Shown: piece after piece, positions 38,530-61,211 of the stretch
How positions within the stretch are numbered: the first letter of the stretch is position 1
How the letters are laid out: the number at the start of each line of letters is the position of its first letter
Assembly: GCA_030583665.1 (NCBI GenBank)
Contig: CP129469.1
Location: forward strand, 2,409,043-2,473,042
Length of the DNA stretch: 64,000 nt
Source: Candidatus Jettenia sp. AMX2
Lineage (GTDB): Bacteria; Planctomycetota; Brocadiia; Brocadiales; Brocadiaceae
Reading direction: 5' to 3'
Position numbers and translations under genes: made by a program
Notes under the pieces: generated by a model
Databases searched by the model: none
The model's input: the letters and a program-made list of their open reading frames with translations, nothing else
Told to the model about the DNA's origin: nothing

Positions 38530-39555
38530 CTATAGCGCCTTCATAAACTCTACCAGGTCTTCCATCTCCTGCTGTGTCAGATGGGATGTCCTGCCGTGCA
38601 TGTCCTTGTCATTCACCGTATTATTAATCGTGTCCATCAGCGTCCTTGCCCCACCATCATGAAAATAGGTGCCTGATGCATAAATATCCCTCAGCGTCGG
38701 CGTGTCAAACTCCTTCACCAGGTCTAACCCGATAATCGGCGTATCACTCTCTTCACCATAAGGATCTTCCCCTGCCTCCAGCGCTGCCTGGTTAAATACC
38801 TTACCCGGCGTTGAACGGAACCCCTTTACTCCTACCCTTCCGGTTCCTACATCATGCGTCTGTGCATCGCTAAACAGTGACCTCGTATCCAGCGCATCAC
38901 CAGGATGACACTCTGCACATCCTACCTTCGGATCGTTAAATATCTTCTCGCCACGCTTCTGCGCCTCTGTCAGACTCCCATCCGGATTTCTGAACGGACT
39001 ACCCGTAAACTCCAATGCCCTGATATAGCAAATGATCGCCTCAAGCCTCTCAGGTGAAAAGTTCTCACTCCTGAACACAAAACCAGGATCCCTTCCGCAT
39101 ACACGGTCCAGAGAACTCGTCGCTCCCACGATCTCATCAGGATGACCCGTGAAACCCTCATGCCTGAACGGCGGCAGATACCTTCCGCCACGAATGTACT
39201 TCGTGTTCTTCCAGCTCCCCCAGCCTTCATCTCCTAAATCCCAGATCAAACCCGTTGTCTGACCTCTCTCATAATGACAACTGGCGCATGCATACTCACC
39301 CTGCAGACCCCAGGAAGCATCATTGAATATAAACTGACCGTATCTCACCAGCTCACTCTTAAACGGTGAATGCTTTACCCGGTAATGTACCTCAGGCACC
39401 GTTAATGGCTCACCTCTTGGAAGCATCTCCCATTCCGGCCCCGTCTGAATCACCCCGATAACCTGTGGCATCCCCGCCATCAATTCACCGGTCGTTGCTA
39501 CCCCTGCAATACCAAGGGCTGCAACCAAACCTATCTTCAATGTCTTCGTAACCAT
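38530..39555 (-). CDS. Exported di-heme cytochrome c (cytochrome c peroxidase / MauG family)
   Basis: 341-aa protein with an N-terminal signal peptide (VAALGIAGVATTGELMAG region). Two heme sites: CASCH at the first domain and CAECH at the second, in the order of the CCP/MauG fold, with the later TLRDIYASGTYFHDGGARTL segment typical of the family. Family members reduce hydrogen peroxide or do long-range oxidation. Strong AGGAGG precedes the ATG, codons are more G+C-rich than in the neighbours, and a perfect terminator follows, which suggests high, single-gene expression. Located outside the cytoplasm. Confidence 0.92.
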   Translation of the reverse strand: MVTKTLKIGLVAALGIAGVATTGELMAGMPQVIGVIQTGPEWEMLPRGEPLTVPEVHYRVKHSPFKSELVRYGQFIFNDASWGLQGEYACASCHYERGQTTGLIWDLGDEGWGSWKNTKYIRGGRYLPPFRHEGFTGHPDEIVGATSSLDRVCGRDPGFVFRSENFSPERLEAIICYIRALEFTGSPFRNPDGSLTEAQKRGEKIFNDPKVGCAECHPGDALDTRSLFSDAQTHDVGTGRVGVKGFRSTPGKVFNQAALEAGEDPYGEESDTPIIGLDLVKEFDTPTLRDIYASGTYFHDGGARTLMDTINNTVNDKDMHGRTSHLTQQEMEDLVEFMKAL

Positions 39556-40548: not shown

Positions 40549-41955
40549 TTAGTGCGCCCATTCGCTGGCAGAGGTACAAAGTCTTGCTATATTATACTTA
40601 GCAAGTTTATTTTGAAGTGTTGTGCGTGGTATACGTAATATCTCAGACATACGTACCTGATTGCCGTTTGTCTTTTGATAAGCCCATAAGAGGAGTTTTT
40701 TCTCTGCCTCGCAGAGTGTTTCCTGTAAATCAAGAGAGTCAATTGTTGAGAGTTCGACAGGAAATATCGAGGAGGCCGTCTCTTTTCCCGAAACAGTGCC
40801 GGGAAGGTTCTTTGGTATGATGGTATGGGAGGAACAAAAAGTAACGGCATGTTCAACAGCATTTTCCAGTTCCCTAATGTTTCCCGGCCAATTATACATC
40901 AGGAGCAGATTAAGCGCTTCATCGGATATAAAGTGGACATCGACACGTTGCCGTGTTGCATATTTTTTAATAAAGTAGTTTACCAGGAGTGGTATGTCTG
41001 CTTTTCTTTCCCTTAAAGGCGGAAGATGAATCGTAACAACATTAAGCCGGTAATACAGATCTTCACGAAAACAGCCTTCCAACACATGCTTTTTTAGATC
41101 TTTCTTGGTTGCGCAGATAAAACGCACATCGACAGGGATTGTCTCTTCGCCACCTACGCGTTCAAACTCTCTTTCCTGAATAATCCTGAGTAATTTAACC
41201 TGTATCTCCACTGGGATATCATCTATATCATCAAGAAATATCGTACCTCCGTTAGCAAGTTCAAAACGTCCCCGCCTCATCCTGATAGCCCCTGTAAACG
41301 ACCCCTTTTCATGTCCGAAAAGTTCACTCTCCAGAATTTCTTTATTTAATGTTGCACAACTGAGTTTTACGAAAGGTCCGTCACGGCGGTTGCTGTTGTA
41401 ATGAATTGCGCTGGCTGTAAGTTCCTTGCCTGTACCACTCTCCCCCTGAATAAGTATTGTTGTATCCCTGTTGGATACGGTTCCTATAATCTCAAATATC
41501 CGTTTCATGGCATCGCTTTTCCCGATAATATTGTCATAGCCATACTGGGTGAGTATCTGCTGTCTGAGCATACGGTTCTCTGTGACAACTGCTTTATGTT
41601 TGAGCGCCTTCTGAAGTTTAAGAATCAGTTCTTCGAGTGAAAATGGCTTTGTTACATAGTCATATGCCCCTTCTTTCATGGATACAACGGCATTCTCAAT
41701 AGAACCGTAAGCAGTCATAATGATAACGACTGCATCGGAGGACACTTTTTTTATTTCTCTCAGGAAATCAATACCATCCATCCTGGGCATGCGGAAATCG
41801 GTTATAACGGCATCAAAGTTTTTGGATTGTAATGCTTTAAGGCCCTCAATAGCATTGGACAAAGAGGTAACGTCATGCCCCTCCTTAATCAGCCTGTCCT
41901 CAAGGGACATGCGGATAAGTTTTTCATCATCGACAACAAGTATAGTGTTTTTCAT
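40549..41955 (-). CDS. Sigma-54-dependent response regulator (NtrC family), RR1
   Basis: 468 aa: receiver domain (phospho-accepting Asp53 in [12 protein letters not shown]), AAA+ sigma-54 interaction domain, Fis-type HTH ([20 protein letters not shown]). The Walker A is GESGTGKE, the loop that contacts sigma-54 is GSFTGA (variant of GAFTGA) and Walker B is [10 protein letters not shown] with Asp in place of the usual Glu, a form seen in a subgroup of these regulators. It follows its presumed partner kinase by 30 bp on the minus strand. No typical -24/-12 promoter was found for its targets. Confidence 0.93.
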
Positions 41956-58413: not shown

Positions 58414-58957
58414 AATAGTATTGAAATCAAATTAGTAAGTACCAAGTAGCAAAGAAAGATAAAATTTATTCTATGAAAATAAAGCTGTACCAAACTGCCA
58501 CATTGTAAACATTCCACAATCCTGAATCAAGTATTTTAGCGGGCATCCTTTAATTTATCTAATTATCAGAATCAGTACCTAATAGAATTGTATAATAGAT
58601 TTTCAAACTTTATTTATCACCAAACATCACGAACAATTCAACATTTACTACTCAAATTAAATATTTGACATACCCCTAATTTTTTCTATAATGGTTTTTT
58701 TGTGCTATATACGTTTTCTGTACAGACCTGGTACATTTTTCAACCCATATGGTTAATATAAGCCAATATTAAAAAAATACGAACCATTTGTATTTTTTAT
58801 AATAATACCAACTTGTCTTTATTAAACAACTTAGTATTTTATTAATTATGGCATAATATGTGCTATTTTCCACGTGAATAGACTTTTTAGCGTATCTGTG
58901 GAGACGTTGTGTATGTTTTTTAGGAACATTATTTACTGAGTGATGGAGGTAAGAGAG
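58414..58957. other. Upstream region of the cytochrome c cluster
   Basis: About 540 bp, very AT-rich, containing a near-perfect promoter (58665-58692) and a weak A/T hairpin around 58775-58795. The ~255-nt distance from promoter to the cytochrome start is a long untranslated leader. No other gene seen. Confidence 0.6.
58665..58692 (+). promoter_or_regulatory. Consensus sigma-70 promoter of the first cytochrome c gene
   Basis: TTGACA (58665-58670), 16-bp spacer, TATAAT (58687-58692): both hexamers are perfect consensus. Confidence 0.8.
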
Positions 58958-58960
58958 TTG
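58944..58960 (+). promoter_or_regulatory. GGAGG site that sets a TTG start
   Basis: GGAGG at 58944-58948, 9 bp before TTG 58958. The ATG at 58943 overlaps the site and cannot be used with it. Confidence 0.7.
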
Positions 58961-59437
58961 TCGAAAAAGTTTTTTTTGCTAAGTTTAATGGTTGCTATTG
59001 GCATGTGGACTACCGGAACATATGGTTTTGACGAAGCGATATCCTCTGATGTGGAAAAGGAAAAAAGTGAACTGGCAAAGATTATGGGCGAAATAGATAA
59101 GCATTACAAGGCGGTTGAAAGAATATCGGGATATTATAAGTATAGTGATACTGATTGGAAGGATATAGAAGAGGCAAGCGAAAGAATTGCTCAATTGACA
59201 AAGGTCGTCATTCGTAAGTTTTCCCGGCCTGATGATAAAAAATATGAAGACCTTAATAAAACTATGCTCAAAGAAGCAGAGAAGATGCTGGAGGTTGTAG
59301 AGCACAAAAACGAACCGGGTGCACTGGAGGATGCCCAGTGGCAGGTTCGCCGGTTAAGACAAACTTGTGCCCTTTGTCATAAGCACCTGGGCATACATAT
59401 TTATCCGCAATTGTATCCAGGTAGTAATAACAAATAA
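58958..59437 (+). CDS. Exported mono-heme cytochrome c, class II-like (cytochrome c' type)
   Basis: The start is TTG at 58958: a strong GGAGG lies 9 bp upstream and the protein then begins with an N-terminal signal peptide (KKFFLLSLMVAIGMWTTG). The in-frame GTG/ATG further up overlap the ribosome site. The mature part is mostly helical (long charged helices) with one heme site near the C-terminus, RRLRQTCALCHKHLG, the position expected for four-helix-bundle class II cytochromes. About 160 aa. Probably periplasmic/anammoxosomal electron carrier or NO-binding protein; the ligand is not known. Confidence 0.86.
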   Translation: MSKKFFLLSLMVAIGMWTTGTYGFDEAISSDVEKEKSELAKIMGEIDKHYKAVERISGYYKYSDTDWKDIEEASERIAQLTKVVIRKFSRPDDKKYEDLNKTMLKEAEKMLEVVEHKNEPGALEDAQWQVRRLRQTCALCHKHLGIHIYPQLYPGSNNK

Positions 59438-59561: not shown

Positions 59562-59728
59562 ATACTGGCTGAACAGAATGAAGCAGCCTAATTCTGGATA
59601 GTTTGAAATTCCTGAACATAAATTTAGATATAAAAATTGTATTACACACTACATTTTATAGTAGTTATAAAGGATCGTAAAAAGGGGAAAAAAGGGTTGT
59701 TTTTTAACTTAATAGGCAAAATTTTTGC

Positions 59729-59757
59729 TTGACTCATTTTTCATTCAGTGCTATAGT
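59729..59757 (+). promoter_or_regulatory. Near-consensus sigma-70 promoter without a downstream gene close by
   Basis: TTGACT (59729-59734), exactly 17-bp spacer, TATAGT (59752-59757). The next start codon of a real gene is more than 600 bp away. Confidence 0.75.
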
Positions 59758-59763
59758 GTAAAA

Positions 59764-60176
59764 AATTTTGTCTATAAAATTGGCTCTGGCATTGTTTCGA
59801 GATTCCCGAACAGCAATCCTTTGAAGGTGTAGAAAGGCGTTGGTTAAGCGGGCTGCTGCTCTTATTGCAGTAATGAATTACCCCTAAGCTACATGTTCTG
59901 CGTTTTTTCGTGCTTCTTTAATATTCTAGGTTCATAAGAATTTCAAGAATTCTATTAGCCCTGCAACACAACAACCTGTGTCCGTCCTTATATCAATCGG
60001 AAAGAAGCTTTAAGCCAGATAGAGTAGGGGGAAAATCAGGAAATATAGGGAATAATCCTGTTGTGCTTTTTATCTGTCGATCACGTTAGGATTCTTTAGA
60101 TAGCGAGGTTACAATGTAGAGTATTTGCTATATGCCAAATTGTCTTATACTGCTCTACGCTATCCATGATTTTTTT
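59764..60176 (+). ncRNA. Candidate structured non-coding RNA (~410 nt), unknown family
   Basis: Bounded by the promoter at 59729-59757 and by a terminator-like hairpin: GATAGC (60099-60104) and GTAGAG (60116-60121) pair with the continuous CTCTACGCTATC (60153-60164), followed by seven T (60170-60176). There is no long reading frame. I looked for RNase P, tmRNA, SRP and 6S hallmarks (e.g. the GAGGAAAGTCC core, T-loop plus CCA end) and did not find them. It could alternatively be a long leader. Confidence 0.4.
60099..60176 (+). terminator. Terminator-like hairpin of the candidate RNA
   Basis: 12-bp stem with a 10-11 nt bulge on the 5' arm, five bases, then TTTTTTT. Confidence 0.5.
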
Positions 60177-60372
60177 GGTATGAAGGGAGGTGAAGCAATA
60201 GGTTTAAGATTGGAGGGCGTATATCACAACATTTTAAAGATTTAAAAAGTATGGTGCCCTACCTGCTGTTATATTGGTTTATTACGGAAAATTGTATTAA
60301 CGAAGTTGGATAATTGTAATATTATGGTACTAGCATATAAGTTCTTTTAACAAGGAAAGTGAGGAAGGAAAA

Positions 60373-60780
60373 ATGAGGCTGAAAACAGGTATTCTTGCCG
60401 GAACGACTGCATTGTTTGTGACTGCGATGGCATCAATTAGTTACGGGCAAACCCAGGGTGAATTATGCAAAAAGATGTGGGATAGCTTTCAGGGAATGAG
60501 AGCGATGACAGGCCTTGCAGTTGCTGAAGACTCAGATTTTGCAAAGTTCGCCGAGTGCGCAAAAGTAATTAATGCTGAGACAGCAATTTCTCTTGAAAAA
60601 ATTTCTCCTGATAAAAACTATAAGGTTTTGAACGAAGAGGTTATCTATCATGCAACAGAAATTGAGAAAGCCTCTGCTGATAAGGACTTAGAAGAGATTC
60701 AGGTACAGTTCAGAAGGCTCACTATTGCTTGCAGAAATTGTCACAAGATTTATAAATCAGAGATGAATCTCGTTCCGTAA
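60373..60780 (+). CDS. Exported mono-heme cytochrome c, class II-like
   Basis: 135 aa with a clear signal peptide ending near SISYGQT. One C-terminal heme site in RLTIACRNCHKIYKSE. Otherwise helical and charged, with heme near the C-terminus as in cytochrome c' types. GAGGAAGG ribosome site. 47 bp upstream of the class I cytochrome; probably co-transcribed, perhaps functioning as a pair. The ligand and partner are not known. Confidence 0.87.
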   Translation: MRLKTGILAGTTALFVTAMASISYGQTQGELCKKMWDSFQGMRAMTGLAVAEDSDFAKFAECAKVINAETAISLEKISPDKNYKVLNEEVIYHATEIEKASADKDLEEIQVQFRRLTIACRNCHKIYKSEMNLVP

Positions 60781-60827: not shown

Positions 60828-61211
60828 ATGAAAATATTTCGTTTATCATATGTAATACCTATAATTGCAGGTTTAGGGTTATCCTTATCAAGTTCTGCCT
60901 GGGCAATAAAAGAACATACGGCTGGTGATACAACGAAGAGTCCTTATACAATTTTTGCTGGTCTTGGTTTTGCCGTTCAGGAAAGCTGTTATTATTGTCA
61001 TGGAAATGGCGGCAAAGGTACAACGAAAGGACGCGAGTTTGGTACGCCTGATTTTACTGATCCAAATTTCCAGTCTTCCAAAACGGATGAGGATTTGGTA
61101 AAAAGCATCAATAGCGGCAAAGGGAACCACATGCCAAGCTATCAGGGAAAGATGTCACCTGAGATGATCGAAAAAATGGCAACGGTTGTAAGAAATTTTG
61201 CAAGCCACTAA
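60828..61211 (+). CDS. Exported mono-heme cytochrome c, class I
   Basis: 127 aa with a signal peptide ending near SSAWA. The heme site is N-terminal in the mature protein, QESCYYCHGNGGKGTTKG, and a methionine ligand is likely in GKGNHMPSYQGKMSPEMIEK. This is the small c-type fold of cbb3-type/c553-like soluble cytochromes. It ends with a terminator, closing the cytochrome cluster. Confidence 0.9.
   Translation: MKIFRLSYVIPIIAGLGLSLSSSAWAIKEHTAGDTTKSPYTIFAGLGFAVQESCYYCHGNGGKGTTKGREFGTPDFTDPNFQSSKTDEDLVKSINSGKGNHMPSYQGKMSPEMIEKMATVVRNFASH

What the first reader, a model, noticed from the sequence alone, without database searches (positions are those of the whole stretch)
59729..60176. Orphan near-consensus promoter and terminator around a ~410-nt ORF-less interval
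TTGACT-17-TATAGT directs transcription into DNA with no reading frame that ends in a 12-bp stem plus T7. The size resembles known housekeeping RNAs but none of their hallmarks is visible. It lies between two exported cytochrome c genes.
Basis: partly seen in the sequence, partly recalled or inferred. Interest (0 to 1): 0.6.

Follow-up and report, generated by a model that had tools for sequence, protein, structure and literature searches.

The report
Orphan ribosome-binding box in anammox leaders
The "orphan" promoter really drives a long untranslated leader of the naxLS cytochrome genes in an anammox bacterium, and that leader holds a strongly kept ribosome-binding sequence with no start codon after it; the same odd element recurs ahead of the hydrazine-making, hydrazine-oxidising and ammonium-uptake genes, which points to a shared RNA-level way of keeping core anammox messages productive.

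Summary
The promoter is real and conserved: TTGACT-17-TATAGT at 59729-59757 lies in a near-invariant block in 20 genomes from 11 genera of the anammox family. The interval is non-coding. The 12-bp-stem terminator is not supported: no scan hit, it does not form in the fold, and by eye it is absent from the nearest leaders. The interval is not a free-standing ~410-nt RNA. Its length varies (141-423 nt from -10 to the box) and its sequence is not kept. It is the 5' part of a long leader of naxL-naxS (PDB 6r6m/6r6n). It pairs over 12 nt with this genome's 16S 3' tail. Similar orphan boxes precede hydrazine synthase beta and gamma (gamma inside this window), hydrazine dehydrogenase and two Amt transporters. 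In hzsB, leader-bearing copies carry the box (14 of 15 strong); 11 of 11 operon-internal copies lack it. Best reading: a STAB-SD-like element holding 30S subunits on the mRNA, to protect or load it. RNase J, the nuclease of the classic STAB-SD model, was not found. Function is inferred.

The parts
59719..59760 (+). Conserved naxLS promoter block: A/T-rich AAATTTTT, -35 TTGACT (59729-59734), conserved spacer, -10 TATAGT (59752-59757)
   Evidence: 10/12, TG before the -10; only match in window; near-invariant in 18 leaders; 20 genomes, 11 genera
59764..60372 (+). Predicted 5' leader of naxLS, about 609 nt (transcription start inferred from the -10, not measured)
   Evidence: promoter plus absence of a supported terminator before naxL; synteny of promoter, box and gene start
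59764..60169 (+).
   Evidence: (z -0.17), (141-423 nt from -10 to box in relatives; 22-54% three-way identity in most 50-column blocks)
60099..60176 (+). Claimed terminator: bulged, wide-looped 6+6 bp stem and T7; not supported. A T-run just before the box is however kept in relatives
   Evidence: T-run
60182..60195 (+). Orphan anti-16S box GAAGGGAGGTGAAG: extended Shine-Dalgarno without start codon, 191 nt upstream of the naxL ATG
   Evidence: 19 genomes, 117-214 nt before ATG; 14 adjacent columns at 94-100%, flanks mostly 30-60%; own 16S tail GATCACCTCCTTTCT; -21.2 kcal/mol, strongest in 64 kb
60214..60260 (+). Possible helix AGGGC (60214-60218) with GCCCT (60256-60260) just downstream of the box; most relatives can form it, L014 and L020 lack it
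   Evidence: 6 pairs, one with changes on both sides, covariation term +0.2: not proof
60361..60369 (+). Ordinary ribosome-binding site of naxL (GAGGAAGGA)
   Evidence: kept in relatives as GTGAGGAGGGG
60373..60780 (+). naxL, class II (c'-type) cytochrome subunit of the NaxLS complex
   Evidence: PDB 6r6m_A, E 1.2e-35; PF01322
60828..61211 (+). naxS, class I cytochrome subunit (Kusta0088 homologue)
   Evidence: PDB 6r6n_B, E 2.3e-49
58940..59437 (+). Upstream gene: exported CxxCH protein, distant NaxL paralogue, kept in synteny
   Evidence: 27% identity to NaxL; orthologue in all 20 loci; weak PF01322
39648..39661 (-). Second orphan anti-16S box of the window (ACAGGGAGGTGATG), 106 nt upstream of hydrazine synthase gamma
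   Evidence: -17.8 kcal/mol; distance; GGAGGTGAT kept in two relatives
38530..39555 (-). hzsC, hydrazine synthase gamma subunit
   Evidence: (PDB 5c2v_C, E 1e-199)

Best explanation
The feature is the conserved promoter and long untranslated leader of the naxLS operon. The working part of the leader is an orphan anti-16S box, GAAGGGAGGTGAAG at 60182-60195. In the mRNA it can pair with the 3' tail of 16S rRNA over 12 nt, but no start codon follows, so a 30S subunit bound there is not expected to start translation. Proposed mechanism: the bound 30S subunit shields the mRNA from decay entering from the 5' side and/or stays as a nearby reserve for the true naxL start, so that a very abundant protein keeps a long-lived, well-loaded message. 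The same device sits in leaders of hydrazine synthase beta and gamma, hydrazine dehydrogenase and ammonium transporters. Shown: promoter and box conservation, synteny, 16S complementarity, recurrence, and presence in leader-bearing but not operon-internal hzsB copies. Inferred: transcription through the region, 30S binding, and the effect on stability or translation.
For: Box at 94-100% identity over 14 adjacent columns with flanks mostly at 30-60%, present in all 19 loci that reach it, 117-214 nt before the ATG. Own 16S ends GGATCACCTCCTTTCT; duplex -21.2 kcal/mol, strongest in the window. No kept start codon after it. Of 19 AARGGAGGTGA sites in the genome, 2 are antisense to 16S, 4 lie inside ORFs, 3 have a normal start, about 10 are orphans, ahead of HZS-beta (5c2v_B), HDH (6hif_G), two Amt and naxLS; the reversed control pattern gives 4 sites. 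hzsB: 15 leader-type copies carry it (14 strong, 1 partial), 11 operon-internal copies lack it. Departures from perfect complementarity at box positions 1-11 keep a G-U pair in 15 of 23 distinct cases. [quoted passage not shown] A closely similar layout is described for cry3A STAB-SD (PMC4113751).
Against: No transcript or ribosome data. RNase J, whose block explains STAB-SD in Bacillus, was not found in this genome, so the nuclease being blocked is unknown. The box is no more accessible than in shuffled contexts. Some orphan boxes elsewhere are followed by 3-13 codon ORFs. G-U-keeping changes are A-to-G transitions, which are common anyway. Two orphan sites (CRISPR leader L043, mobile element L051) do not precede a long gene.
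Confidence: 0.6

Rival explanations
1. Free-standing ~410-nt non-coding RNA with its own promoter and terminator.
For: Strong conserved promoter; ORF-less interval; a T-run is kept before the box. Consensus folding of the three nearest leaders slightly beats column shuffles (4 of 100 reach it).
Against: Interval length varies threefold and sequence is not kept across the family; no supported terminator; no unusual fold; no Rfam match; conserved box and gene follow directly in synteny.
Confidence: 0.07
2. Ribosome standby or loading site: the box raises translation initiation at the weaker naxL site by holding 30S subunits nearby, without any role in mRNA decay.
For: Very strong anti-16S pairing beside ordinary proximal sites; no RNase J to block.
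Against: 100-200 nt is far for a standby site as generally described (my knowledge); distance to the start varies from 117 to 214 nt.
Confidence: 0.25
3. The box is the ribosome-binding site of a short upstream ORF or leader peptide that controls naxLS.
For: Window ORF 60132-60245 contains MKGGEAIGLRLEGVYHNILKI; some orphan boxes elsewhere have ATG/TTG plus 3-13 codons; cobalamin-riboswitch leaders have a 5-codon ORF after a similar box.
Against: In naxL leaders the ATG overlaps the box and is ACG or GCG in several relatives, and no start codon is kept at ribosome-binding spacing.
Confidence: 0.05
4. The box is a DNA element (regulator site or second promoter), and its resemblance to a Shine-Dalgarno sequence is accidental.
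For: It sits between promoter and gene; A/T-rich promoter-like sites exist nearer naxL.
Against: In the naxLS, hzs, hdh and amt leaders it is in the sense orientation downstream of the leader start; its consensus across unrelated genes is the exact complement of the 16S tail (GAAAGGAGGTGATC).
Confidence: 0.06

Closest known systems
STAB-SD of Bacillus thuringiensis cry3A (described in PMC4113751; original Agaisse and Lereclus 1996)
   Same: A Shine-Dalgarno-like sequence in the 5' leader, far upstream of the true start (-129 in cry3A; -117 to -214 for naxL), complementary to the 16S 3' end, not starting translation, below a more distal promoter, ahead of very highly expressed genes.
   Different: Different phylum; longer complementarity; recurs across a functional set of catabolic genes; RNase J, the 5'-3' exonuclease it blocks in Bacillus, was not found here.
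Ribosome standby sites in structured bacterial 5' UTRs (PMC3936740)
   Same: Ribosome contact upstream of the true ribosome-binding site.
   Different: Here a conserved, extended 16S-complementary motif at 64-214 nt.
NaxLS operon of Kuenenia (PDB 6r6m, 6r6n; PMC7438415)
   Same: The downstream genes are NaxL and NaxS.
   Different: I found no description of its leader in the held library.

Membership tests
STAB-SD 5' mRNA stabiliser | Extended complementarity to the organism's own 16S 3' end, within the 5' leader | tested here: met
   12 pairs with GATCACCTCCTTTC, -21.2 kcal/mol
STAB-SD 5' mRNA stabiliser | Does not direct translation (no start codon at ribosome-binding spacing) | tested here: met
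   no kept start codon in 19 naxL leaders (sequence evidence only)
STAB-SD 5' mRNA stabiliser | Distal promoter giving a longer transcript that includes the element | tested here: met
   conserved promoter 141-423 nt upstream of the box
STAB-SD 5' mRNA stabiliser | Stable transcript 5' end just upstream of the element; loss of stability on mutation | not testable with these tools
   needs 5'-end mapping and decay assays
STAB-SD 5' mRNA stabiliser | Blocks the 5'-3' exonuclease RNase J1 | tested here: not met
   best RNase J (TIGR00649) match 22 bits against a cut-off of 400 in a 99.99% complete genome
Known housekeeping RNAs (RNase P, tmRNA, 6S) or any Rfam family | Covariance-model match over the interval | tested here: not met
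   RNase P and tmRNA found elsewhere; 6S none in genome
Small RNA gene with intrinsic terminator | Terminator hairpin plus T-run | tested here: not met
Leader peptide / upstream ORF | Kept start codon and reading frame after the ribosome-binding sequence | tested here: not met
Ribosome standby site | Unstructured, accessible ribosome contact region upstream of the true site | tested here: inconclusive
   opening energy about 4 kcal/mol, same as shuffled contexts

The most novel reading that the evidence does not exclude
Bacteria of the Brocadiaceae use an orphan 16S-complementary leader box as a shared post-transcriptional device for core anammox catabolism (HZS beta and gamma, HDH, Amt, NaxLS), stabilising or loading these mRNAs by 30S binding without RNase J.
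Probability: 0.45. Interest if true: 0.75.

Novelty: new variant of a known kind. Interest (0 to 1): 0.58.

Why it matters
Anammox bacteria grow slowly yet keep very high levels of hydrazine synthase and its partners; how those messages are kept is open. A short, testable RNA element shared by these genes would be a handle on that, would extend STAB-SD-like elements beyond the Gram-positive bacteria in which the review read here describes them and to an organism where RNase J was not found, and gives natural paired controls (hzsB copies with and without the box in the same genome).

Tried and rejected
Free-standing ncRNA, RNase P, tmRNA, 6S and other Rfam families: rejected. Terminator: rejected. 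Small ORF over the box: start codon not kept. Conserved structure after the box: a 4-6 bp GGGC/GCCC helix is possible but without real covariation; one pair-count call failed because my structure string had the wrong length. Accessibility of the box: no signal. Shared promoter motif elsewhere in the genome: none within 3 mismatches. Control for the orphan classification on Bacillus phage SPO1 (50 kb): no exact 11-mer there, and with an energy threshold many strong sites lack a start too, so it is a weak control; I lean on orthologue conservation and the hzsB copy comparison instead. Other phage accessions were not held.

Full report
WHAT IS THERE. The window lies in a complete 3.46-Mb genome. 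Its downstream genes identify an anammox bacterium: 60373-60780 is NaxL (PDB 6r6m_A, E 1.2e-35) and 60828-61211 is NaxS (Kusta0088, PDB 6r6n_B, E 2.3e-49). The same GTDB family includes Candidatus Brocadia pituitae: genome G040 has the 4,075,302-base contig length of AP021856.1. I did not determine the genus of the window's genome.

PROMOTER. TTGACT-17-TATAGT at 59729-59757 is the best promoter-like site in the region and the only such match in the window. Searching relatives with the region found it in 20 genomes of 11 genera, always upstream of naxL, except one contig that ends before the gene (L013). Anchored without gaps, the promoter and even its spacer are near-invariant. It is not an orphan: it is the naxLS promoter.

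THE INTERVAL. It has no long ORF, no Rfam match, and folds no better than shuffles. The terminator is not found by scan or fold. Between the -10 and the conserved element the distance varies from 141 to 423 nt among relatives, and in the three closest distinct leaders three-way identity falls to 22-40% across most of the middle. RNase P RNA and tmRNA are elsewhere in the genome, and the 6S model finds nothing.

THE CONSERVED BOX. It is present in all 19 loci that extend to it, 117-214 nt before the naxL ATG. No start codon follows at ribosome-binding spacing in a kept way. Both 16S copies of this genome end GGATCACCTCCTTTCT; the box pairs with that tail over 12 nt (one G-U) at -21.2 kcal/mol, the strongest site in the window. 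naxL keeps its own ordinary site next to the ATG.

RECURRENCE. AARGGAGGTGA occurs 19 times in the genome against 4 for the reversed pattern. Two are antisense to 16S, four lie in ORFs, three precede a start normally, and about ten are intergenic orphans (one of these, L044, has an 8-codon ORF at looser spacing). The genes downstream of orphans include hydrazine synthase beta (5c2v_B, E 6e-200), hydrazine dehydrogenase (6hif_G), two ammonium transporters and naxLS. One further orphan lies in the window itself: 39661-39648 (-), 106 nt upstream of hydrazine synthase gamma, with GGAGGTGAT kept in the leaders of two relatives. Orphans also precede Amt in G005 and G008 and an HDH-like gene in G020. 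Family-wide, the pattern exceeds its control in nearly all genomes; part of this is ordinary sites and mobile elements (for example about 17 copies of one element in G010).

A NATURAL CONTROL. In 48 hzsB loci from named genomes, the copies with their own leader downstream of an NtrC-type regulator gene carry the box at -105 to -150: 15 leader-type copies counting this genome's, of which 14 are strong and L189 is partial. The 11 copies that lie about 50 nt behind a 180-residue gene lack it. Nine genomes hold one copy of each kind. No strong box was seen in the Scalindua or Anammoxibacter loci (L215 is borderline and L220 was mis-anchored). This ties the box to being in an mRNA leader, not to the coding gene.

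HOW IT MAY WORK. A 30S subunit is expected to bind such a site but not to initiate there. In Bacillus thuringiensis cry3A the same arrangement, STAB-SD, stabilises the message by blocking RNase J1, with a distal start at -558 and a stable 5' end at -129 (PMC4113751). The layout here is strikingly similar. RNase J, however, was not found in this genome, so the shielding would have to act on another nuclease, or the box acts as a ribosome reserve. Both predict higher output for very abundant proteins; NaxLS and HZS messages are among the most highly expressed in Kuenenia, and naxLS is also strongly regulated (PMC7438415). I rate 30S binding with a gain in output as most likely, and I cannot separate shielding from loading.

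LITERATURE. Searches of the held library for anammox leaders, STAB-SD, Shine-Dalgarno in Kuenenia or Planctomycetes, and anammox mRNA stability found no description of this element. Subscription papers are mostly not held, so absence is weak evidence.

LIMITS. The classification of orphans was automatic and then read by eye; the SPO1 control was not informative; accessibility gave no support; transcription start, ribosome binding and function are inferred.

Noticed in passing
L121, L143, L152, L163, L177, L178 (relatives), near locus position 1500: Tandem cobalamin riboswitches (RF00174) are followed by AAAGGAGGTGA, a five-codon ORF starting TTG or GTG (TTA in L178), then an apparent terminator; the mini-ORF may be part of the switch.
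   Followed up: partly
L043, 1501-1511 (own genome C1:1311225): An orphan AAAGGAGGTGATC lies in the leader of a CRISPR array downstream of Cas1-like and Cas2-like ORFs; no protein is made from such a transcript, which would favour a stability role if not chance.
   Followed up: no
window 59729-59757 and L002-L020: The spacer of the naxLS promoter is conserved too and in many relatives holds TCATT...AATGA, a possible operator; naxLS is reported down 10- to 20-fold on NO in Kuenenia.
   Followed up: no
L051 (own genome) and L146 (G010): Same orphan box and context (cgcttgacagAAAGGAGGTGAAGGAATAG) at the end of a transposase-like ORF in two genera: a mobile element.
   Followed up: no
L044 1966-1870 (-): c-di-GMP-I riboswitch (RF01051, 60.6 bits) in the own genome near a pilin-like gene.
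   Followed up: no
L188-L235: Most hzsB leader-type copies lie behind an NtrC-type regulator gene, as hzsC does in the window (40549-41955, -), which suggests sigma-54-linked control.
   Followed up: no
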